Shown one piece after another: positions 9,527 through 20,537 of a DNA stretch of 64,000 bases. Made by a program: the position numbers and the translations under genes. The stretch comes from Gemmatimonas phototrophica (GTDB lineage: Bacteria > Gemmatimonadota > Gemmatimonadetes > Gemmatimonadales > Gemmatimonadaceae): assembly GCF_000695095.2 (NCBI RefSeq), contig NZ_CP011454.1, forward strand, positions 3,348,001-3,412,000, written 5' to 3'. The notes beneath the pieces were generated by a model that saw only the letters and a program-made list of their open reading frames with translations, did no database searches and was not told the origin of the DNA. Positions within the stretch are counted from its first letter, which is position 1; each line of letters begins with the position of its first letter.

Positions 9527-10675
9527 TCAGGAAGCGGCCAGCAGCAGCCGCAGGAGGCCGGTGACGGCCCCCCCCAGCAACACCCATGCAGCTCCCACGC
9601 GGGTGTACAGCAGGAGGACGCTCGCCCCGATCAAGATAGCCAATGCGGCGGGAGAGGGGGCGATTCCGCGGCCAATGAGCAGCACCGCCGATGCCATCAG
9701 GGCCAACGACACGGCGTTCACGGCATCCAGCGCGCGTGACAGCACCGGGGAGGTGCGCAGCCGGTGTACCAGGGGCGCCGTGAGGGCCACGCCCGCAAAG
9801 GCCGGGAGAAAGATCCCCAGCGTGGCGACGAGTGCCCCGGCATGTCCGCCCAGCTGGTATCCCACAAAGGTGGCGGCCGAGAACACCGGCCCCGGGGTGA
9901 CTTGTCCTACGGCAATGGCATCCAGCAGTTGTCCTTCAGTCAATACTCCCAACCGAGTGACAAACTCACCACGCAGGAAGCTGAGCAGCACATAGCCACT
10001 GCCAAAGAGCACGCTGCCAATTTTGGCGAAGCTGAGAAATATCCCGCCCGCACTCAGCGTAGACGCGGCAGCGGCCGCGCCGGAGGGGAGCAGCGCGCCC
10101 ATGGGAAACAGCATGCCGGCCTCGGGCGAACCGTTCGCTTGGCCGCTGGCACTGATCGTCAGGGCAATGGCGATGGCCCCCAGCAGCAGGTACAGCTCGG
10201 AGACCCCAAGCAGCGCCCCGATAAATGCCGCAATGGCCAGCCACCCGCCAAGCCGAGTGCGCGCCAGGCTGCCCTTGAGCCGCCAGATGGCTTGGACCAC
10301 CACCGCCAGCACCGCCGGCTGCAGCCCCTGCAGCATGGCCTGCACTTCCACCCGGCCCCCGTAGCGGCCGTAGGCCCAGGCCAGCCCCCACACCATGAGC
10401 ACGGCAGGCACAATGAAGCAGATGCCCGCCACCAGCAATCCCCTCCACCCGGCGCGGCGATAACCGAGGTGAATGGCCAACTCGGTGGAGTTGGGACCGG
10501 GAATGAGGTTGGCGGCGCCTACGAGGTCGGCAAACTCGTCACGCGTGACCCACTGCCGTCGGGAAACCAGCTCGTCTTCCATGGCCGCGACATGCGCCGC
10601 CGGGCCACCAAAGGCGGTGACACCGAGGCGGGTGAATACCTGGGCGACTTCGGCGAGCGGAGCGGACGGGGACAT
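9527..10675 (-). CDS. chrA: Chromate transporter, full-length (two-domain) ChrA
   Basis: Inner-membrane CHR-family protein, about 382 residues, with two homologous halves. The first has the signature GVTAFGGPAAHVAAMEDELV and PGPNSTELAIHLGYRRAG; the second has LSFAKIGSVLFGSGYVLL and VGQVTPGPVFSAATFVG. About ten to twelve hydrophobic helices are visible. Family members export chromate by proton or sulfate exchange. The chosen ATG gives the normal N-terminus (LAEVAQVFTRLG); an 80-residue upstream extension is Arg-rich and out of character. Divergent from the DNA methylase gene across ~150 bp. No chrB or other chromate gene is adjacent, so chromate as the physiological substrate is not certain. 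Confidence 0.93.
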   Translation of the reverse strand: MSPSAPLAEVAQVFTRLGVTAFGGPAAHVAAMEDELVSRRQWVTRDEFADLVGAANLIPGPNSTELAIHLGYRRAGWRGLLVAGICFIVPAVLMVWGLAWAYGRYGGRVEVQAMLQGLQPAVLAVVVQAIWRLKGSLARTRLGGWLAIAAFIGALLGVSELYLLLGAIAIALTISASGQANGSPEAGMLFPMGALLPSGAAAAASTLSAGGIFLSFAKIGSVLFGSGYVLLSFLRGEFVTRLGVLTEGQLLDAIAVGQVTPGPVFSAATFVGYQLGGHAGALVATLGIFLPAFAGVALTAPLVHRLRTSPVLSRALDAVNAVSLALMASAVLLIGRGIAPSPAALAILIGASVLLLYTRVGAAWVLLGGAVTGLLRLLLAAS

Positions 10676-10826: not shown

Positions 10827-13800
10827 GTGCTTACTCTCCGAACTGCCGCCCAGACCCTTGCCCGCGCGGACTCGCTGCCAGCGCTGCGGGCCATCGCCCA
10901 ACTCATCGGCTTCACCAGCCCCCCTCACGTGGCCGATACCGCGCTCTGCCGGCGGCTTGGGGTGGCACCACTGGTCAGTGCCGCGGAACTGCTCGAAAGC
11001 CGCGGCGCACTGCGGCTGTTTTGTGCACTGCTCAGTGAGCCACGAGAACCACAGGAGGTGTCGGAACTGCGTGAACGCACCCGACGCCTTGCGGCCGCGC
11101 TCTGCCGCCACGCTCCCGACCGGCAGTGGTGTGTGCTCACGCTCGACATCGACAGTCAATCACTCTGCCTCGCTACCGTGACCCCCGCAGCGAGCGGCGT
11201 GCAAATGGCCGCGCTGCGGGTGGATGTGCACCGCGTTCTTGATTCCGATGCGGAAACGCTGCGAGCGCTCGCCGCGGTCACCGAAGACGATGATCTGCTG
11301 CGACACGCCCGATTCACCGACATTCTGCGGCGGGATGCATTGGGGCATCGGTTCTACCGGGCCCTGGAGCAGGTGGTCTCGGCCCTGGCAGCATCGCTCG
11401 CACCGGTACGTGGCAGCAACCGCGCACCCTCGACGGCTGAGCGTCGCGAGCTGGCGCTGCTCTGTGCTTCGCGCTGTCTGTTCCTGGCCTTTCTCGAAGC
11501 CAAAGGCTGGCTAAATGGTCGGCGTGATTTCCTGTTGCACCACTGTGTGCGGGTACTGGAACAGGGTGGCCATCTGCATGAGCGCCTGCTGCGACCGCTC
11601 TTCTTCGGCACGCTGAATACGCCCCGTGCCCAGCGTGCGTCGGCGGCCATGCAGTTTGGTGCCGTCCCGTTCCTCAACGGCGGCCTGTTTGCCCCTACGG
11701 CCCTGGAAAAGCGTCTCCGCCATTGGCACTTCGGAGACGACAGCATTACCACACTCGTGGCGTCGCTGTTGGACAAATACCGATTCACGGCGCACGAAGA
11801 GTCGGACCAATGGTCGGAGGCGGCCGTTGACCCCGAGATGCTGGGACGCGCGTTCGAAGGGCTCATGGCCGGCGAGGAACGTCGTCGCTCCGGCTCGTAC
11901 TATACGCCGCCCGGGCTGGTGGCCCACACCGTGCGCGCTGCGCTACGCTCCACGTTTGCCGAGTCACCTGCCCTGCTTGGCCTGCTCGCCGATGAGAATG
12001 GAGCGCAGCGAACCACGACGGTACCTGCCACGTGGCCGGAGTCGGAACGGGCCGCGCTGCGAAGACAGGTGGAAACGCTGCGCGTGCTCGATCCAGCCTG
12101 TGGCTCCGGCGCGTTTCTGGTGCATGTGCTGGAGGCGCTCGATTCGTTGCTGGCAGCGTTGCACGATAGCCGCGATGCGCATACCCGTCGGCGAGAGATT
12201 CTGGCGCGCTGTGTTTTCGGGGTGGATCGACAGCCCATGGCGGTATGGTTGTGTGAATTGCGTCTCTGGCTGTCAGTGGTCATTGAGTGCCCCGAAACAG
12301 AGGCCTCGCGCATTCCGCCGCTCCCCAACCTCGACCACCATATCCGGGTTGGCGACTCGCTCGCGGGCGGCAGCTTTGCCTTTGCCCCTCCGGGGGGCCG
12401 AGCACTCACCGTGCTGCGCGAGCGATACGCTCGCGCTTCGGGCGCGCGCAAACAGCGCATGGCGTGCACACTCGACCGCGAAGAGCGTGGTCGTGCCGTC
12501 GCCGAACTGGCACGCCGGCGTGCCGCCATGCAGGAGGAACGACGGTCTCTGCTGACTGCCCTGCGGGGGCGTGATCTGTTCGGGCACCGCCGGCGCGTGC
12601 AACGCGCGGAGCGCCGGCGACTCGACACGTTGAGGAGCCACACCCGTGCCCTGGGTGCGGAGTCGCACCGGGTGCAACTGGGCGCTGCCCTTCCCTTTCG
12701 CTTTGCGGCCATGTTTGCCGACGTTGCCGCCGCCGGCGGGTTCACGCTGGTGGTGGGGAACCCACCGTGGGTACGCCCACACGCGATGCCCGCCCCGGAG
12801 CGCGAATGGCTGCGAAAGGAGTTCCGGGTCATGCGGCATGCCGCGTGGCAGCACGGTGCTTCGCGGGCTGGCGCCGGCACGGGCTTTGCCGCGCAGGCCG
12901 ACCTGGCCACGGCGTTCATAGAGCGCAGCGTGCAGCTGCTGGCACCCGGCGGCGTGATGGCGCTGCTGGTGCCGGCCAAACTATGGCGCACACTGTCCGG
13001 GGGCGGCGTGCGTCGCCTGCTCCTCGACGAAACGCATCTGCGCGTGTTGCAAGACTGGAGCGATGCACCCGCGCAGTTTGATGCGGCCACCTATCCATCG
13101 CTGGTGGTGGCGCAGCGACCGTATGCAGGGACACGCGTGCCCTCCAACACTGAGAGCACCACGCCGGTGCGCTGCGCCGTCACGCGAAAGCAGACCGTCT
13201 CCTTCGAACGACCGTTGGCAAGCCTGTCGCTGCAGAGTGATCCGGGCGCCCCCTTTCTCCTCCTCCCGTCCGCCGCGTTTCAGGCCTTTGAGGCACTGCG
13301 CCACGCCGGCACTCCGTTGGCGACCACTGCGTTTGGCCGCCCATTGTTGGGTGTGAAGTGCGGCTGCAATGCCGCCTTCCTGGTACACGCGGAAGAACAC
13401 CACGACGATGGTGCCACGGTGTCCGCTCTCATGGGCCCCCCACGACAGGCGGTCATTGAACGCACCCTGTTGCGGCCGGCGCTGCGGGGCGAATCCATCG
13501 GCGGTGGTTCCAAGCGGTTGCTCAGCACGACCGCACCAGATGCCCGCATTGTATGGACGCACGGAGCTGACGGGCGCCCGCTGCGAACGTTGCCCCCGGC
13601 CACCACTCGCTGGCTGGCTCAATGGCGTCCCCGACTCCAGACCCGTGGTGACGCGCGACATAGCCAGCCGTGGTGGACGCTCTTCCGCACCGAGGCCGCG
13701 CGCAGCGACACATCGCGCGTGGTGTGGGCCGATATTGGCCGCACGTTGCGTTCCACAGTACTCACCGCCGGAGACCCTACGGTTCCGCTGAACAGCTGTT

Positions 13801-14120
13801 ACGTCGTGCGTGCACCAACGCAGGCCGATGCGCTCGCCCTGCACGCGCTGTTGTCGTCCACCATTACCAATGCGTGGCTGGATGCACTCGCGGAACCGGC
13901 ACGCGGCGGCTTTCGCCGTTTCATGGGATGGACCGTTGCTGCGCTGCCCCTCCCCGCCAATTGGGCGCGCGCCGTACGACTGCTGCACCCGCTGGGAGCC
14001 GCACTGTCCGACCGTGGTCCCCACCTCTCACCCGCGGCGCTCGATGCCGCGGTGCTGGAAGCATACCAGCTCACACCACTGCTCATGGCCCCGCTACTGG
14101 AATGGTATCACCATGATTGA
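10827..14120 (+). CDS. Large Eco57I-type N6-adenine DNA methyltransferase (candidate defence protein)
   Basis: About 1097 residues. An N-terminal helical region (residues ~1-340, with FLAFLEAKGWL resembling type IIG/PglX-like proteins) precedes SGSYYTPPGLV near 355, the AdoMet motif I DPACGSGAFLVHVLEAL near 421 and the catalytic NPPW in LVVGNPPWVRP near 644. The C-terminal ~400 residues should hold the target-recognition part. I see no PD-(D/E)xK nuclease motif, so it is probably not a self-sufficient type IIG enzyme. Its stop overlaps the start of an SNF2-like helicase by eight bases, so the two are co-translated. Class 1 DISARM contains a comparable methylase (DrmMI) and helicase (DrmD), but drmABC are not present here. 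GTG start with no clear ribosome-binding site. Confidence 0.88.
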   Translation: MLTLRTAAQTLARADSLPALRAIAQLIGFTSPPHVADTALCRRLGVAPLVSAAELLESRGALRLFCALLSEPREPQEVSELRERTRRLAAALCRHAPDRQWCVLTLDIDSQSLCLATVTPAASGVQMAALRVDVHRVLDSDAETLRALAAVTEDDDLLRHARFTDILRRDALGHRFYRALEQVVSALAASLAPVRGSNRAPSTAERRELALLCASRCLFLAFLEAKGWLNGRRDFLLHHCVRVLEQGGHLHERLLRPLFFGTLNTPRAQRASAAMQFGAVPFLNGGLFAPTALEKRLRHWHFGDDSITTLVASLLDKYRFTAHEESDQWSEAAVDPEMLGRAFEGLMAGEERRRSGSYYTPPGLVAHTVRAALRSTFAESPALLGLLADENGAQRTTTVPATWPESERAALRRQVETLRVLDPACGSGAFLVHVLEALDSLLAALHDSRDAHTRRREILARCVFGVDRQPMAVWLCELRLWLSVVIECPETEASRIPPLPNLDHHIRVGDSLAGGSFAFAPPGGRALTVLRERYARASGARKQRMACTLDREERGRAVAELARRRAAMQEERRSLLTALRGRDLFGHRRRVQRAERRRLDTLRSHTRALGAESHRVQLGAALPFRFAAMFADVAAAGGFTLVVGNPPWVRPHAMPAPEREWLRKEFRVMRHAAWQHGASRAGAGTGFAAQADLATAFIERSVQLLAPGGVMALLVPAKLWRTLSGGGVRRLLLDETHLRVLQDWSDAPAQFDAATYPSLVVAQRPYAGTRVPSNTESTTPVRCAVTRKQTVSFERPLASLSLQSDPGAPFLLLPSAAFQAFEALRHAGTPLATTAFGRPLLGVKCGCNAAFLVHAEEHHDDGATVSALMGPPRQAVIERTLLRPALRGESIGGGSKRLLSTTAPDARIVWTHGADGRPLRTLPPATTRWLAQWRPRLQTRGDARHSQPWWTLFRTEAARSDTSRVVWADIGRTLRSTVLTAGDPTVPLNSCYVVRAPTQADALALHALLSSTITNAWLDALAEPARGGFRRFMGWTVAALPLPANWARAVRLLHPLGAALSDRGPHLSPAALDAAVLEAYQLTPLLMAPLLEWYHHD

Positions 14121-16569
14121 TCGTTCACTCCTCACGGAAACCCATCTGCCTGACCGGCCTGGCGAGTCGGCAGTACCAGATCGTGTGCGCGCCATCAGAC
14201 GACGCATGGCACTCGCCATTCTCCCGCCCCTTCCCTCACCGCGGCTTGGCACCATCACGCTGCTCACGCATCAGCAACAGGCCGCGGCTCGGCTCCTTCG
14301 TATGCTGGCCTGGCACCGCGGGGCACTGCTGGCCGACGATGTGGGCTTGGGAAAAACGTTCACCGCGCTCGCCGTGGCGCAGCGCTACCAGCAGGTCCAC
14401 GTGCTCGCCCCGGCCGCGCTTGTGCCCATGTGGCAAGGTGCCCTGCTGCGCAGCCAGCAAGCACACATCACCGTCCATTCGCTGCACAGATTCTCCCGTC
14501 GCACACCACCACCGGTCAAACTCGTAGCGTCACCCACTACGGGCGCAGGCCCCCATCCCCTGATCATCGTGGACGAAGCCCACGCGCTGCGCAACCCGTC
14601 CACTCTGCGGTACCGCCACTTGGCTGCAGCCGTGGCTGGCTGCCATGTATTGCTTATCAGCGCCACCCCCCTGCACAACAGCCCACGGGACCTGCATGCG
14701 CTCTTTGCGCTATTCCGCGGCCAGCAGGCCGACACGCTTCGCCCGGATGTGCTGTCGTCACTGATCGTCCGTCGCGACCAGGCGCTGACACACCCACGCA
14801 CGCCCCGCGCGCCGGCGGGTCGTCGGGAGCAGACCACCGTGTCGGGAGCCATTCGCCCGGACGTGCACACCCACCGTGCGCTGGTCGTTCCGCAGGACCG
14901 ACGCACACTCGATCTGCTGCTCGCGCTCCCGGCGCCGCTCCCGGCCCACGATGGTGCCGTGGCCGGTGCGCTCATCCGACTGGGGCTGTTGCGCGCCTGG
15001 TGCTCTAGTGATGCGGCCCTCGCGCAGGTCGTGACCCGCCGCATACAGCGCGGCAGTGCCATGCGCGATGCTCTGCACGCCGGGCGACATCCCACCAATG
15101 CGGAGCTACGCGCGTGGGTGCTGGGCGACGACGGTGGCACGGAGATGCAGCTGGGGTTTCCCGAATTGCTGGTGCAGCAGACGGCCCCCGACATGACGGC
15201 CAACGGTAAGCCGCCGCTCGTATTGCTCGACCGTCACCTCGAAGCGCTCCGCCTGCTCCGCGATCATCATGCAGCAACGGCGCAGGCCGATGCGGTGCGT
15301 GCCGCCATGTTGCGCACGGTCCGCGAACGGCATGCGGGGGTGTCGGTGGTCGCGTTCTCGCAGTACAGCCGTACCGTGCAGGCGCTATACCGCGCCCTCA
15401 GCGATATCGCCGGCGTGGGGCTGCTGACGGGAAGCTCCGCCCGTATTGCCAGCGGCGCGGTATCCCGGACGGAGTTGCTGGAGCACTTCGCGCCGCGCGC
15501 GCACGGCCGTCCTCCACCGCCGACGCACCAGGCGGTCACGCTGCTGCTCACTACCGATCTCATTGCCGAAGGCGTGAATCTCCAGGACGCCGGCGTCATC
15601 GTCCATCTCGATTTGCCGTGGACATACGCGCTGCGCACACAGCGCACCGGCCGCGTGGCCCGCCTTGGTTCGCGCTTTCGCGTGGTGCATGAGTATCGCG
15701 TACAAGCCGCGGCCGCGGCCCGTCGCGCTTTACGGGCAGAGACGCGTGTGGCGCGCAAAGCGGCACTCACGGCGCGCTATGTGGGCGGCATACAATCCGG
15801 ATGGTCGGGGAGCAGTCGCGTTGCCGTCAGTGCTGCAGACGTCACCAGTCAGTGGCTCAACTGTCTCGACTCATGGATGCAAGACGCGCCTGTCGCGCCG
15901 CAAGAAGACGCGCCATGGTTGGCGGTGCAGACGCGCGAGGGCACCGCATGCACCGCACTGGTACTGACCACGGTGGCTGATGGGCATACACTGCTGGCAC
16001 TTATGCAGCACCACGGACGGTGGCGCGTATCATCGCGCCCCGCCGCGCTGTTGCGGGTGGCCGAGATGCAGCGACAGGCCACTCCGCTATCGGCGCCCTC
16101 GGGCGTGGACGCACATGCCTGGGGTCACCGGATTTGTCGAGTGGTACATCAATGGCATGTCCGGCAGAACGCGCGACGCGTATCGGGGCTAAGCGCCCAT
16201 GCGCCGAACCCCGATGGCCCACCGCTGGCCCCTGCACAACGGCGCGCGATGGCGTGGCTGCTGCGCATCGTGTCGGCCCTCTCAACGGTGCACCGGCAAC
16301 AATACGCCCATGCCATCGCCGCCGCCCGGGCGTGCATTGAGCACGCCTATGGCACAGCGGCAGAACGGGCACTGACCACGTGGATGCAGACCGGCCCCTC
16401 GGACCCTACCCGGCAATTGCTGGCGTGGCGTGAGTTCGACGTATTGGTGCGTGGGGTCCCGACTGTGAGTACGCGCAGCCGGGAGACCGTCGCGGCCTCG
16501 TCACACTCCGGCGGGGATGTGCTGGCCTGTCTGCTGTATATAGGAGTCACGGGCGAATCGCCGCCGTGA
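14113..16569 (+). CDS. SNF2/DEAD-type helicase partner of the DNA methylase
   Basis: About 818 residues with a full superfamily-2 motor: LLTHQQQAAARLL then Walker A DVGLGKTFTAL near residue 75, DEAH box IIVDEAHALRNP near 153, motif III LISATPLHNSPRDL near 182, and in the second RecA lobe LTTDLIAEGVNLQDAG and motif VI QRTGRVARLG near 509. The ~300-residue C-terminal region has no motif I can name. RapA/DrmD-like enzymes of this kind translocate on duplex DNA. ATGATTGA overlap with the methylase gene implies coupled translation and a shared complex. A longer upstream frame inside the methylase gene is not the start because the ATG used follows directly at the overlap and begins the conserved region. 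A defence function is inference. Confidence 0.88.
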   Translation: MIDRSLLTETHLPDRPGESAVPDRVRAIRRRMALAILPPLPSPRLGTITLLTHQQQAAARLLRMLAWHRGALLADDVGLGKTFTALAVAQRYQQVHVLAPAALVPMWQGALLRSQQAHITVHSLHRFSRRTPPPVKLVASPTTGAGPHPLIIVDEAHALRNPSTLRYRHLAAAVAGCHVLLISATPLHNSPRDLHALFALFRGQQADTLRPDVLSSLIVRRDQALTHPRTPRAPAGRREQTTVSGAIRPDVHTHRALVVPQDRRTLDLLLALPAPLPAHDGAVAGALIRLGLLRAWCSSDAALAQVVTRRIQRGSAMRDALHAGRHPTNAELRAWVLGDDGGTEMQLGFPELLVQQTAPDMTANGKPPLVLLDRHLEALRLLRDHHAATAQADAVRAAMLRTVRERHAGVSVVAFSQYSRTVQALYRALSDIAGVGLLTGSSARIASGAVSRTELLEHFAPRAHGRPPPPTHQAVTLLLTTDLIAEGVNLQDAGVIVHLDLPWTYALRTQRTGRVARLGSRFRVVHEYRVQAAAAARRALRAETRVARKAALTARYVGGIQSGWSGSSRVAVSAADVTSQWLNCLDSWMQDAPVAPQEDAPWLAVQTREGTACTALVLTTVADGHTLLALMQHHGRWRVSSRPAALLRVAEMQRQATPLSAPSGVDAHAWGHRICRVVHQWHVRQNARRVSGLSAHAPNPDGPPLAPAQRRAMAWLLRIVSALSTVHRQQYAHAIAAARACIEHAYGTAAERALTTWMQTGPSDPTRQLLAWREFDVLVRGVPTVSTRSRETVAASSHSGGDVLACLLYIGVTGESPP

Positions 16570-16599: not shown

Positions 16600-17244
16600 A
16601 TGACACGTCCTGCCCTGCTTTTTGATCTCGACGGTACGCTCATCGACTCCATTGGTCTGTTGTTGGAGTGCATGCAGTACGCCTTCGCCGACCGTGCGCG
16701 TAAACCGACCACCGCCGAGTGGGTCGCGGGTATTGGCACCCCGCTGCGCACCCAATTGGCGGAGTGGTGCGCTGGGCCAGACGACGTGGAGGCCATGGTC
16801 GGGCGCTACCGCGACTATCAGGATCTGCATCTGGAGCGGCTCACCAGCCCCTTCCCTCACGTGCTGGACACCATGCAGTGGGCGCGCGCCGAGGGGTTTC
16901 CCACGGCGCTCGTGACCAGCAAGGGCAAGGGTATGACCAAGCGCTCCCTCGACCACGTGGGGCTGGGGCAATCGTTCGACGCGGTGGTCACCTTCGAGGA
17001 AACCACGCGCCACAAGCCGCTCCCCGACCCCGTCTTTCTGGCCCTGGAGCGGCTGGGAGCCCATCCGGAACAGGCGCTGTTTGTGGGCGATTCGCCCCAC
17101 GACATGCACGCCGGCCGCGCCGCCGGTGTAAAAACCGCCGCCGCCCTCTGGGGGCCGTTCAGCCGGACGGAGCTGGCCGTGGCCACCCCGGACTTCTGGA
17201 TGACCGGATTTGGGGAACTGCCGGGCATTGTCGCAGGGCTCTAG
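16600..17244 (+). CDS. HAD-superfamily phosphatase (Gph/PpaX-like)
   Basis: A 214-residue haloacid-dehalogenase hydrolase with all four motifs: LLFDLDGTLIDS (nucleophile Asp and acid Asp), ALVTSKG (Ser/Thr motif II), the Lys in RHKPLPDP, and FVGDSPHDMHAGRAAG (motif IV Asp pair). A helical cap lies between motifs I and II, as in phosphoglycolate phosphatase and pyrophosphatase PpaX. Substrate cannot be fixed from sequence. Begins 30 bp after the helicase stop on the same strand; it may be read from the same transcript, but nothing ties it to the methylase-helicase pair. A TTG two codons upstream is an alternative start. Confidence 0.88.
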   Translation: MTRPALLFDLDGTLIDSIGLLLECMQYAFADRARKPTTAEWVAGIGTPLRTQLAEWCAGPDDVEAMVGRYRDYQDLHLERLTSPFPHVLDTMQWARAEGFPTALVTSKGKGMTKRSLDHVGLGQSFDAVVTFEETTRHKPLPDPVFLALERLGAHPEQALFVGDSPHDMHAGRAAGVKTAAALWGPFSRTELAVATPDFWMTGFGELPGIVAGL

Positions 17245-17944: not shown

Positions 17945-18772
17945 ATGACCACGGAACTCCGCCTCACCACATCCGCTGCCGACTGTGCCCGTTTCGAGGC
18001 ACAGCTGGGCGCGTGGCTGGAACAGGATTTGGGCACCGCCGACCAGGCCTTCATGACACGGCATCGGTCCAGCTGCGCCACCTGCGACCGCATGGTGCGC
18101 GACCTGGAACAGCTCGTAGCCGACGCGGGGGCGTTGTCGGATCTCACCCCGCCCCGTGATCTGTGGCAGGGCATTGAAGCCCGACTGGAAGCGCCGGTTA
18201 TTCCCATTTCGTCGGTCGCGGCGGCAACGCCGGTCCGTAAAGCCCGCACCGTCTCCGTCCGCTGGTTTGCCGTGGCTGCCACGCTGCTCGTGTCGGTCAG
18301 CTCGGCCGTGACGTGGAAATTTGCGCAGTCGCGGAGCGCTGTCGGTGCGGGTGGCTCCACAGTGGCCACACAGTCGCCACAAGACACCGACAGCACCACC
18401 GTGGAAACTGATGTGTTGCCCAGCGCGACCGTCGAACTGGCCGTGGGCATGCCGTCGGCCACCACGTCGCGGGGCAGCAGTACGCCCACCCGTTTGGCGT
18501 CGCGGTTCAACGACGAGGGTGAAGTGCCTGATGCGCACTCCACCTACGAGCGTGAAATCTCGGCGTTGCGGCAAATCGTGGACGAGCGCTTCGCCGAGCT
18601 CGATCCCGGCACAGTCACGGAGTTGCGCCGCAATCTCGATATCATTGACCGCGCCATTGCCGACAGCAAAGCGGCGTTGGCCGGCGATCCACGCAGTGCG
18701 CTGGGCTCCACGCAGCTGGACCGCGCGTTGCAAGCCAAGCTCGATCTGCTCCGTCGGGTGGCGCTGCTGTGA
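17945..18772 (+). CDS. Anti-sigma factor with putative zinc finger and one membrane segment
   Basis: A 275-residue protein. Residues ~14-40 have the zinc anti-sigma pattern: a Cys followed by HRSSCATC, i.e. H-x3-C-x2-C. A single membrane helix (VRWFAVAATLLVSVSSAV) lies near residue 105, followed by a Thr/Ser-rich periplasmic linker and a helical C-terminal domain (YEREISALRQIVDERFAELD). This is the layout of RsgI/ChrR-like membrane anti-sigma factors: the cytoplasmic finger holds the ECF sigma until an envelope signal arrives. Encoded directly after the sigma gene; its stop overlaps the GTG of the next gene (GTGA). Confidence 0.88.
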   Translation: MTTELRLTTSAADCARFEAQLGAWLEQDLGTADQAFMTRHRSSCATCDRMVRDLEQLVADAGALSDLTPPRDLWQGIEARLEAPVIPISSVAAATPVRKARTVSVRWFAVAATLLVSVSSAVTWKFAQSRSAVGAGGSTVATQSPQDTDSTTVETDVLPSATVELAVGMPSATTSRGSSTPTRLASRFNDEGEVPDAHSTYEREISALRQIVDERFAELDPGTVTELRRNLDIIDRAIADSKAALAGDPRSALGSTQLDRALQAKLDLLRRVALL

Positions 18773-19701
18773 ACTCGCACATGTCCTTTTCCCGAGTGTC
18801 GGCCGTGATGACCATCGCTGCAGGTGCCATGCTCATGGCACCTGCGCCGGCCCTGCAGGCGCAGTCGCGCGATACGACGGTGCGCGTCACCGGCAGCGCC
18901 GTGGTGGATGTTACCGTGCGCACTGGCAAGCTCGTGGTACGTGGGGTTGATGGCTCCACCGGCAGTGTGCGCGGCGGCAGCAGCAATTACGAACTGCGCA
19001 GCACCGGTGTGTCGCTCACGCTGGTCTCGCGTGACGATACGCGCCGCAATGCACGCGCCGACCGCGACGAGAGCACCATTGAACTCGATGTTCCTCGTGG
19101 GGTGCGGCTGGTGGTGTCCACGCTTTCCGCCGACGTAGACGTGCGGGACATCGGCGGCAGTGCGGAAATTCGCACCACCAGTGGTGACATCCAGCTGACC
19201 GATGTGTCCGGGCGAGCCATCGTGGAAACCATCTCCGGCGATGTGCGCACCACCGGCAGCGGTGCGCTATTGCGTGTCACTACCGTGAGCGGAGACCTGC
19301 GGGTGCGGGAAGCGCGCGGCGAGCTGGATCTGCACACCACCAGTGGCGACGTGAGTGTAAGCGGCGAGCGTATCGGCCGTTTTGCGGTCGAGAGCATGAG
19401 TGGAGACATCCAGTTTGACGGGCTGTTCACAACCGATGCCCGTGTACAAGTCAGCACCCACAGTGGCGACGTCACGTTGCGCGTGCCCGATGGGGCGCGT
19501 GGAGAACTGTCGCTGTCCACGTACAACGGCGAACTCACGGCCGGTGGCCCGCTCACCCTGCTGCCGGGCGAGTCGTCATCGGCACGGCGTGGGCGCAATA
19601 CGCGGCGCTATGCCTTCGGGACCGGCCAGGCGCCGGGGGTGTTGCTCGACATTACCACGTTCACCGGCGACGTCCGCCTTGTTCGAGGAGTACGTCCATG
19701 A
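18769..19701 (+). CDS. DUF4097-type beta-repeat envelope protein (first copy)
   Basis: A 310-residue exported protein: signal peptide ending in APALQAQ, then regular short beta repeats of the form IRTTSGDIQLTDVSG, VETISGDVRTTGSG, VTTVSGDLRVREA and LHTTSGDVSVSGE, the TxSGDV ladder of the DUF4097 right-handed beta-helix family. Such proteins are called putative adhesins, but their function is not established. GTG start overlaps the anti-sigma stop; an ATG at 18781 is an alternative that begins the signal peptide more directly. Its stop overlaps the ATG of the second copy. Co-transcription with the sigma/anti-sigma pair suggests a role in envelope stress. Confidence 0.85.
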   Translation: MNSHMSFSRVSAVMTIAAGAMLMAPAPALQAQSRDTTVRVTGSAVVDVTVRTGKLVVRGVDGSTGSVRGGSSNYELRSTGVSLTLVSRDDTRRNARADRDESTIELDVPRGVRLVVSTLSADVDVRDIGGSAEIRTTSGDIQLTDVSGRAIVETISGDVRTTGSGALLRVTTVSGDLRVREARGELDLHTTSGDVSVSGERIGRFAVESMSGDIQFDGLFTTDARVQVSTHSGDVTLRVPDGARGELSLSTYNGELTAGGPLTLLPGESSSARRGRNTRRYAFGTGQAPGVLLDITTFTGDVRLVRGVRP

Positions 19702-20537
19702 CCATTCTGCTTTCGGAGTTCCGTATGCGTTCACGTGTCCGTCCGTTGACCGCCATTGCTACCATCACGGCGGCCTCGCTGCTGTGCGCCACCGCGCTTG
19801 CGGCTCAGGATACGCGTCGCGAAAACGCGTTCACCTGGTCGGGCAGTGTCCCGTCGCGCGGCACGCTGTTCATCAAGAACATCAACGGCGGCGTGGAAGT
19901 GGAGCGCAGCACCAGCGGCCGCGTGGAAGTCACCGGTGAAAAGCGGTGGCGCCGTGGCAATCCCGATGATGTGCGCATTGAAGAAAAGAAGTCGGGTGAC
20001 AACGTGGTCATTTGCGCGCTGTACAACGAAGGGGCCACCTGTGACGAGCGGGGGATTCGCTCCGAGCGGCGTATGCGCTGGAACGACCGCAACGACGTGT
20101 CCGTGCGTTTCGTGGTGCGGGTGCCGGAAGGCACGCGGGTTGATCTTTCCACCGTGAACGGCGGCATTGAAGTGCGTGACGTGAGCACCGAAGTGCACGC
20201 GACCACGGTGAACGGCAGCATCACGGCACGCAGCGCTGGTGGCCCGGTGTACGCCAAGACCGTGAACGGCAGCATCAACGTCTCCATGGGGTCTCTGGGC
20301 CGCGCCGACGACCTGGAGTACGAGACCGTGAACGGCGCGATCACCCTCGAGTTTCCCGCCAACTTTGGGGCGGAGCTCGAACTGAGCACGGTGAACGGGC
20401 GTGTCTCCACCGACTTCCCCATTACCGTGTCGGGCACGCTCTCCCCGCGTCGGTTGCGCGGCACCGTGGGTGATGGCCGCACCCGCGTGCGCGCCAGCAC
20501 GGTGAACGGTTCGGTCACGCTGCGAAAAGGGAGCTGA
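19698..20537 (+). CDS. DUF4097-type beta-repeat envelope protein (second copy)
   Basis: A 279-residue exported paralogue of the preceding protein, with a signal peptide (ASLLCATALAAQ) and a beta-repeat ladder in which the repeated turn is TVNG rather than TSGD: LSTVNGGIEVRDV, ATTVNGSITARSAG, AKTVNGSINVSMG, YETVNGAITLEF, LSTVNGRVSTDF and ASTVNGSVTLRKG. A charged N-terminal segment with two Cys (VVICALYNEGATCDERG) is not shared with the first copy and could form a disulfide. Overlaps the first copy by ATGA, so both are translated together. Last gene of the sigma-factor operon; a hairpin follows 44 bp downstream. Confidence 0.85.
   Translation: MTILLSEFRMRSRVRPLTAIATITAASLLCATALAAQDTRRENAFTWSGSVPSRGTLFIKNINGGVEVERSTSGRVEVTGEKRWRRGNPDDVRIEEKKSGDNVVICALYNEGATCDERGIRSERRMRWNDRNDVSVRFVVRVPEGTRVDLSTVNGGIEVRDVSTEVHATTVNGSITARSAGGPVYAKTVNGSINVSMGSLGRADDLEYETVNGAITLEFPANFGAELELSTVNGRVSTDFPITVSGTLSPRRLRGTVGDGRTRVRASTVNGSVTLRKGS

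What the first reader, a model, noticed from the sequence alone, without database searches (positions are those of the whole stretch)
10827..16569. Two-gene DNA methylase plus SNF2-like helicase module, candidate phage defence
A ~1100-residue Eco57I-type methylase and an ~820-residue SNF2-like helicase overlap by 8 bp. Both active sites look intact and no nuclease motif is visible. The pair resembles DrmMI and DrmD of class 1 DISARM, but drmA, drmB and drmC are absent and flanking genes are housekeeping-like. It could be a minimal system using methylation and translocation only, or a remnant.
Basis: partly seen in the sequence, partly recalled or inferred. Interest (0 to 1): 0.65.

Follow-up and report, generated by a model that had tools for sequence, protein, structure and literature searches.

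The report
Core nuclease-less methylase–translocase gene pair
Almost every member of this bacterial family carries, at the same chromosomal place, a DNA-marking enzyme next to a DNA-pulling motor that is related to phage-cutting systems but lacks their cutting domain, so it is either a non-cutting form of phage defence or a defence system retired to another job.

Summary
In detail: an intact 1,097-aa Eco57I/CamA-class N6-adenine methylase (10827-14120, +) and an intact 818-aa SNF2 ATPase (14113-16569, +) overlap by 8 bp. It is not DISARM (DrmD score 71 of 610 bits; no MZB/DUF1998 protein in the genome; genomes with a true DrmD hold it elsewhere) and not a decaying remnant (dN/dS about 0.1-0.4; catalytic motifs kept). 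Nor is it an island gene: the pair is a syntenic, vertically inherited near-core operon of Gemmatimonadaceae (methylase in 123/140, helicase in 123/148 sampled genomes; type I HsdR over cut-off in 14/148), missing from streamlined genomes, present in other families of the class. Distant relatives in many phyla, plasmids and viral contigs pair the same methylase with a helicase carrying an N-terminal phospholipase-D (HKD) nuclease. In Gemmatimonadota that nuclease is gone; one lineage keeps it as a separate gene with the catalytic residues destroyed. So this looks like a domesticated, nuclease-less derivative of a PLD-helicase/methylase restriction-like system. Best guess: methylation-directed, non-cleaving exclusion of foreign DNA; an epigenetic role is the main rival. 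Neither was tested. Methylome data of a relative that lost the helicase suggest, not prove, the site ATGCAC.

The parts
10827..14120 (+). N6-adenine DNA methyltransferase gene, 1097 aa, GTG start, gamma-class (Eco57I/CamA/BseCI/MmeI-like)
   Evidence: full-length or near full-length relatives in 123/140 sampled Gemmatimonadaceae genomes (my count at E<1e-50)
10827..11231 (+). N-terminal alpha+beta domain (aa 1-135), in the place where MmeI/BsaXI/DrdV/BpuSI carry their nuclease; no D-ExK motif, no invariant residue
   Evidence: AF2 model; VIA alignments begin at model residues 127-139 against type IIG/IIL/ISP enzymes; conservation
12090..12113 (+). motif I DPACGSGA (aa 422-429), AdoMet binding
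12759..12770 (+). motif IV NPPW (aa 645-648), catalytic
   Evidence: NPPW/Y/F in 76/76 relatives
13104..13946 (+). C-terminal target-recognition region (aa 760-1040)
   Evidence: AF2 model aligned to CamA and M.BseCI; region conserved in proportion to the core
14113..16569 (+). SNF2-family ATPase/translocase gene, 818 aa, ATG start, overlaps methylase stop by 8 bp
14332..14358 (+). Walker A ADDVGLGKT (aa 74-82)
   Evidence: invariant G78, G80, K81
14572..14583 (+). Walker B DEAH (aa 154-157)
15640..15663 (+). motif VI QRTGRVAR (aa 510-517)
15790..16566 (+). fast-evolving C-terminal alpha+beta and helical region of the helicase (aa 560-818), no conserved catalytic residue
   Evidence: AF2 secondary structure; alignments
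16600..17244 (+). HAD-superfamily phosphatase (phosphoglycolate-phosphatase-like) gene, 30 bp downstream; neighbour kept in most family members; possible operon member, functional link unknown

Best explanation
The pair is a chromosomally fixed, nuclease-less descendant of a two-part restriction-like system (PLD-nuclease/SNF2 helicase plus type IIG-like N6-adenine methylase). Shown by sequence: both enzymes intact, translationally coupled, under purifying selection, vertically inherited and syntenic across Gemmatimonadaceae and present in other families of the class; the PLD nuclease of the related helicases is missing in the window and is seen in a catalytically dead, split-off state in one Gemmatimonadota genome. 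Inferred: the methylase marks the host chromosome at a non-palindromic site (ATGCAC is the best candidate), and the SNF2 motor engages DNA that lacks the mark (or a methylase bound to an unmarked site) and blocks it by translocation, displacing proteins or stalling replication or transcription rather than cutting it. In effect it would be an innate, always-on exclusion system like BREX or DISARM in outcome, but with two genes.
For: Intact catalytic motifs and confident folds. Stop/start overlap kept in most loci. Prevalence: methylase 123/140, helicase 123/148 (87/101 of good genomes) against hsdR 14/148. Same neighbours (cysE, rhodanese, LD-carboxypeptidase upstream; HAD, sigma/anti-sigma downstream) in most Gemmatimonadaceae loci of 20 examined. 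Distances of methylase and helicase correlate at r=0.91, with flanking genes at r=0.42-0.90. dN/dS of methylase about 0.10-0.26, helicase about 0.2-0.4. Methylase tree: helicases with intact PLD all fall on one side (31 rows), the nuclease-less ones on the other (71 rows, SH-aLRT 99). 21 relatives have intact HxK...GSSN; in viral contigs 21 of 23 helicases have at least one PLD motif. L076: a 185-aa gene between methylase and helicase matches the PLD profile (6.9e-11) with HAK and GSSN replaced. For a conflict role: the helicase evolves about 1.4x faster than its methylase and about 1.8x faster than several flanking genes; near-complete genomes of 2.4 Mb or less lack it (0/5 against 87/96, Fisher p about 3e-5, not corrected for kinship); plasmid and viral distribution of the PLD relatives.
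Against: No phage or plasmid assay exists. Fixation, synteny and vertical descent over a whole family are unusual for a defence system and fit a housekeeping role as well. No avoidance of ATGCAC in 464 kb of the own genome, so no sign of past restriction at that site, if that is the site. I know of no case in which a lone SNF2 motor plus a methylase blocks phage without a nuclease; a trans-acting nuclease cannot be excluded. The helicase's fast evolution can also be relaxed constraint. One relative (G079) keeps the methylase without the helicase. The tree is not rooted, so nuclease loss (rather than gain in the other clade) rests on the dead PLD copy.
Confidence: 0.45

Rival explanations
1. 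Epigenetic or chromosome-maintenance module: the ancestral defence pair was domesticated. The methylase is a core regulatory methylase in the manner of CamA or CcrM, and the SNF2 motor is a DNA or RNA-polymerase remodeller (RapA-like) that acts at or near methylated sites.
For: Near-core, syntenic, vertical. Closest solved structures of the methylase are CamA and M.BseCI (Z 29.4 for CamA, 524 residues, 3.2 A); the closest by profile for the helicase is RapA (2e-31). Methylase kept alone in G079. Recognition region nearly as conserved as the core.
Against: Lost in streamlined genomes and a few large ones, so not essential. Helicase evolves faster than most neighbours. CamA and RapA similarity is at fold or superfamily level (12-17% identity for CamA). 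The recognition region is only slightly more conserved than in the mobile PLD clade at matched core identity.
Confidence: 0.33
2. Ordinary restriction with the nuclease supplied in trans: the methylase/helicase complex recognises unmodified DNA and recruits a host nuclease (for example an exonuclease acting at stalled forks).
For: Related systems are nuclease-bearing; helicase motor intact.
Against: No nuclease gene is conserved next to the pair. No site avoidance. The PLD domain was lost rather than replaced.
Confidence: 0.12
3. Decaying remnant of a restriction-modification system kept by drift.
For: Nuclease domain absent; helicase lost outright in G079.
Against: dN/dS well below 1 for both genes, open frames in nearly all of more than 100 species, conserved catalytic motifs.
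Confidence: 0.04
4. Class 1 DISARM that has lost drmABC.
For: First-reader resemblance; weak DrmMI and DrmD profile hits.
Against: DrmD 71.2 of 610 bits, and a slightly better score to DpdE; genomes G249, G168 and G029 carry a true DrmD (over cut-off) elsewhere besides this pair; no MZB/DUF1998 protein in the own genome.
Confidence: 0.02

Closest known systems
PLD(HKD)-SNF2 helicase + Eco57I-class methylase pairs (PADLOC candidate model C3a139 'HKD+Snf2' matches their helicase)
   Same: Homologous methylase over most of its length (about 23-33% identity) and homologous helicase, neighbouring genes, same strand
   Different: Relatives carry an N-terminal PLD nuclease with intact HxK and GSSN, often helicase first or 1-4 cargo genes between; patchy and on plasmids/viral contigs. 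The window pair has no nuclease and is a lineage core locus.
Class 1 DISARM (DrmMI, DrmD, DrmA, DrmB, DrmC)
   Same: A methylase and an SNF2 helicase; a PLD protein (DrmC) in the system
   Different: Scores far below the DrmD cut-off, drmA/B/C absent
BREX PglX/BrxX methylase
   Same: Same fold and domain order of the methylase (VIA Z 26.4, 657 residues, 3.7 A to BrxX 9ewz); a non-cleaving outcome is what I propose here
   Different: No BrxC, PglZ, BrxL etc. nearby; 49 of 900 bits to the best BREX PglX model
CamA (Clostridioides difficile) and CcrM-type core methylases
   Same: Core methylase conserved over a lineage; best structural match is CamA (Z 29.4)
   Different: CamA is solitary and about 577 aa; here a 300-aa N-terminal part and an SNF2 partner are present; regulation untested
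Type IIG/IIL enzymes (MmeI) and type ISP (LlaBIII, LlaGI)
   Same: Methylase core, helical spacer and TRD order; ISP enzymes also couple a methylase and an ATP motor
   Different: No nuclease motif; the motor is a separate SNF2 protein
DUF499-centred BREX-related (BR) systems (PMC12839542)
   Same: Methylase plus Swi2/Snf2 helicase, HKD nuclease fused to the helicase in type 2
   Different: No DUF499 ATPase or DUF3780 next to the pair; another methylase family

Membership tests
Class 1 DISARM | DrmD over curated cut-off (NF038317, 610 bits) | tested here: not met
   71.2 bits; genomes G249, G168, G029 carry true DrmD elsewhere
Class 1 DISARM | DrmB (MZB/DUF1998 protein) | tested here: not met
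   PF09369: no match in the own genome, 8 control genomes positive
Class 1 DISARM | drmA and drmC adjacent | tested here: not met
   flanking genes are housekeeping-like on both sides in the window and in the syntenic loci
PLD-helicase/methylase restriction-like pair | homologous Eco57I-class methylase next to a homologous SNF2 helicase | tested here: met
   HMM matches on the same strand in most of 80 loci; tree
PLD-helicase/methylase restriction-like pair | N-terminal PLD (HKD) nuclease in the helicase | tested here: not met
   window helicase has only about 70 aa before Walker A, no HxK/GSSN, no PLD Pfam match; dead remnant in L076
BREX | PglX over cut-off and PglZ/BrxC neighbours | tested here: not met
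   49 bits of 900; no such neighbours
Type IIG/IIL restriction enzyme | N-terminal PD-(D/E)XK nuclease in the methylase chain | tested here: not met
   no invariant residue in aa 1-175, no D-ExK; the fold of aa 1-135 was not searched alone
Core orphan epigenetic methylase (CamA/CcrM type) | conserved in nearly all members of a lineage | tested here: met
   123/140 Gemmatimonadaceae genomes
Core orphan epigenetic methylase (CamA/CcrM type) | no cognate restriction partner | tested here: inconclusive
   nuclease absent but SNF2 partner present
Core orphan epigenetic methylase (CamA/CcrM type) | methylation regulates genes or cell cycle | not testable with these tools
   needs deletion and transcriptome
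N6-adenine DNA methyltransferase, gamma class | motif I then motif IV NPPY/W, TRD after the catalytic domain, TaqI/CamA fold | tested here: met
SNF2 family ATPase | two RecA lobes with SF2 motifs, SNF2 fold | tested here: met
   (Z 20.4 to the INO80 ATPase, 381 residues, 3.1 A)

The most novel reading that the evidence does not exclude
A two-gene, nuclease-free innate immunity system fixed as a core chromosomal operon of a bacterial class: methylation-directed DNA translocation alone excludes foreign DNA, evolved by stripping the PLD nuclease off a mobile restriction-like system.
Probability: 0.3. Interest if true: 0.85.

Novelty: new variant of a known kind. Interest (0 to 1): 0.62.

Why it matters
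Most known methylase-based defences are patchy and mobile and end in a nuclease or an unknown effector. Here a methylase and a motor are fixed in a lineage after a traceable loss of the nuclease. That offers a minimal system in which to ask whether translocation alone can exclude phage (a question open for BREX and DISARM), or how a defence system becomes an epigenetic regulator. Cultured members of the family (Gemmatimonas, Gemmatirosa) make it directly testable, and one of them already has a methylome.

Tried and rejected
DISARM membership: rejected. Hidden nuclease in either protein: no motif, no conserved catalytic residue. Helicase absence in L038 was an artefact of my first comparison: an intact helicase is there. 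Site avoidance: ATGCAC looked depleted in the window against a dinucleotide null (29 vs 54.7), but not against a maximal-order Markov null on 464 kb (o/e 1.15) nor in two relatives: rejected. TRD conservation as proof of a fixed site: at matched core identity the excess over the PLD clade is small (0.47 vs 0.43): inconclusive. Assigning ATGCAC to this methylase by elimination: G079 has one Eco57I-class and one HsdM methylase and no PF01555/PF02086 match, but the enzyme behind RGATCY was not found, so it stays a candidate. Literature: no paper found in the held library describes this pair. PDB sequence search with the N-terminal 141 aa: no match. Homology of the N-terminal extension of the f9 helicases to the PLD domain is only supported for the linker behind it (hhalign).

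Full report
Observation. Pfam gives Eco57I and N6_Mtase for the first and SNF2-rel_dom and Helicase_C for the second, all above the gathering scores. PADLOC and NCBIfam give only distant hits, spread over REase_MTase_IIG, DrmMI and PglX for the methylase and DpdE, DrmD, ZorD and BrxH for the helicase; for DrmD 71.2 bits against a cut-off of 610.

The proteins. AlphaFold2 models built with relatives are confident (methylase pLDDT 90.6, helicase 82.4). The methylase matches CamA (Z 29.4, 3.2 A over 524 residues), M.BseCI, BrxX (Z 26.4) and MmeI (Z 23.9). Residues 1-135 occupy the place where MmeI, BsaXI and BpuSI have their nuclease (the latter from my knowledge of those enzymes and the alignment ranges), but no residue before 176 is invariant in 41 relatives and no D-ExK is present. 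The helicase core matches SNF2 remodellers and ZorD (Z 17-20) and by sequence profile RapA best (2e-31). SF2 motifs are invariant; its C-terminal third has no invariant residue.

Distribution. In a search of 395 genomes of the phylum the methylase has strong relatives in nearly all Gemmatimonadaceae: by my count of the table 123 of 140 with E below 1e-50. The helicase is found in 123 of 148 (87 of 101 near-complete genomes). As a yardstick, type I HsdR passes its cut-off in 14 of the same 148 and DrmD in 10 of 298 genomes of the phylum. Near-complete genomes of 2.4 Mb or less lack the pair (0 of 5 listed against 87 of 96, Fisher p 2.5e-5, kinship not corrected). They belong to three genera (g2, g8, g10) whose larger members have it.

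Synteny and descent. In 20 loci of about 20 kb the pair sits between LD-carboxypeptidase/rhodanese/cysE genes and a HAD phosphatase/sigma/anti-sigma/DUF4097-like cluster in most of the family, and next to or within a few kb of the HAD gene in some members of other families of the class. Nineteen of 20 have both genes, mostly coupled by overlaps of 4-16 bp. Only G079, whose chromosome of 5,311,527 bp and four replicons match Gemmatirosa kalamazoonensis KBS708 (PMC3974934), lost the helicase and the HAD gene at this place and kept an intact methylase. Pairwise distances of the two proteins correlate at 0.91, and of the methylase with flanking genes at 0.42-0.90. dN/dS in the closest pairs is 0.10-0.26 for the methylase and 0.2-0.4 for the helicase (ORFs were taken stop to stop, so values for short genes are rough). 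The helicase diverges about 1.4 times as fast as the methylase and about 1.8 times as fast as several flanking enzymes.

Origin. A scan of one genome per species gave 80 loci. In most, a helicase relative is next to the methylase. Outside Gemmatimonadota, and on plasmids (Calothrix, Deinococcus radiophilus, Thermus oshimai, Planktothrix), the helicase is typically 1,020-1,170 aa with an N-terminal PLD domain (Pfam PLDc_2); 21 of these have intact HxK and GSSN. Of 23 viral contigs with both genes 21 have at least one of these motifs. A methylase tree puts all PLD-bearing systems in one set of 31 rows and the nuclease-less ones in another of 71 rows (SH-aLRT 99, quick method, midpoint root), the latter being Gemmatimonadota plus a few MAGs labelled Myxococcales, Acidobacteriota and Proteobacteria (and two Chloroflexi rows on a long branch without a helicase in view). 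In Gemmatimonadetes MnB_13 (L076) a 185-aa gene between methylase and helicase matches the PLD profile (6.9e-11) but has FAV for HAK and GALY for GSSN: a dead nuclease. In family f9 the helicase keeps a 170-200-aa N-terminal extension without the motif (homology shown only for the linker). In the window's family nothing of it is left. The root is not inferred, so strictly the data say that the two architectures separate; the dead PLD copy is what argues for loss rather than gain.

Site. The G. kalamazoonensis methylome reports RGATCY, ATGCAC and CCAGN7TCA, each over 99% methylated (PMC3974934). That genome has one Eco57I-class methylase (this one), one HsdM with a weak HsdR-like match a few kb away, and no PF01555 or PF02086 match. 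The bipartite site fits HsdM; the non-palindromic ATGCAC fits an Eco57I/MmeI-like enzyme; the enzyme for RGATCY was not found. So ATGCAC is the best candidate, unproven. It is not avoided in 464 kb of the window's genome or in two relatives.

Mechanism. Shown: two intact, coupled, selected enzymes, no nuclease, kinship to nuclease-bearing systems. Inferred: methylase marks self; motor acts on unmarked DNA; exclusion without cleavage. Alternatives are an epigenetic role (0.33), a nuclease in trans (0.12), a remnant (0.04) and DISARM (0.02). The retention of the methylase without helicase in G079, and no clear case of the reverse in a near-complete genome, fits a motor that needs the mark, but rests on one genome.

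Verdict. Observation confirmed; interpretation partly supported. It is a new variant of a known kind: a domesticated, nuclease-less PLD-helicase/methylase system, not described in the papers I could search. Interest 0.62.

Noticed in passing
window 16600-17244: A HAD (phosphoglycolate-phosphatase-like) gene lies 30 bp downstream of the helicase and keeps this place in most family members and near it in some other families. In E. coli gph also lies in the dam operon (own knowledge); the parallel may be chance.
   Followed up: partly
L060-L063 (plasmids of Calothrix, Deinococcus radiophilus, Thermus oshimai, Planktothrix): In plasmid relatives one to four unrelated genes (DUF262 protein, a protein annotated as sigma-70 factor, hypotheticals) lie between the methylase and the PLD-helicase, like exchangeable cargo.
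   Followed up: no
L109 7762-8268, L110 7541-8074: Two rumen Proteobacteria MAGs have a nuclease-less methylase/helicase pair followed by a small gene that resembles the YraN/UPF0102 endonuclease-like family (own recognition of the sequence, not searched).
   Followed up: no
window 18769-20537 and relatives: A sigma factor, anti-sigma and tandem DUF4097-like proteins follow the module; the DUF4097-like genes vary in copy number between relatives and evolve fast.
   Followed up: no
window 9527-10669: A ChrA-like transporter gene between the methylase and the aminotransferase is present or absent among close relatives, the most patchy neighbour.
   Followed up: no
L200-L219 (G019), L180-L199 (G079), L160-L179 (G000): Strong avoidance of palindromes such as CAGCTG (o/e 0.15) in G019, AGCGCT (0.38) in G079 and GTCGAC (0.45) in the window's genome, hinting at other restriction specificities.
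   Followed up: no
L240 (IMG/VR 3300003315_000001): A contig filed as viral carries the nuclease-less version (35% identity); it may be host DNA.
   Followed up: no
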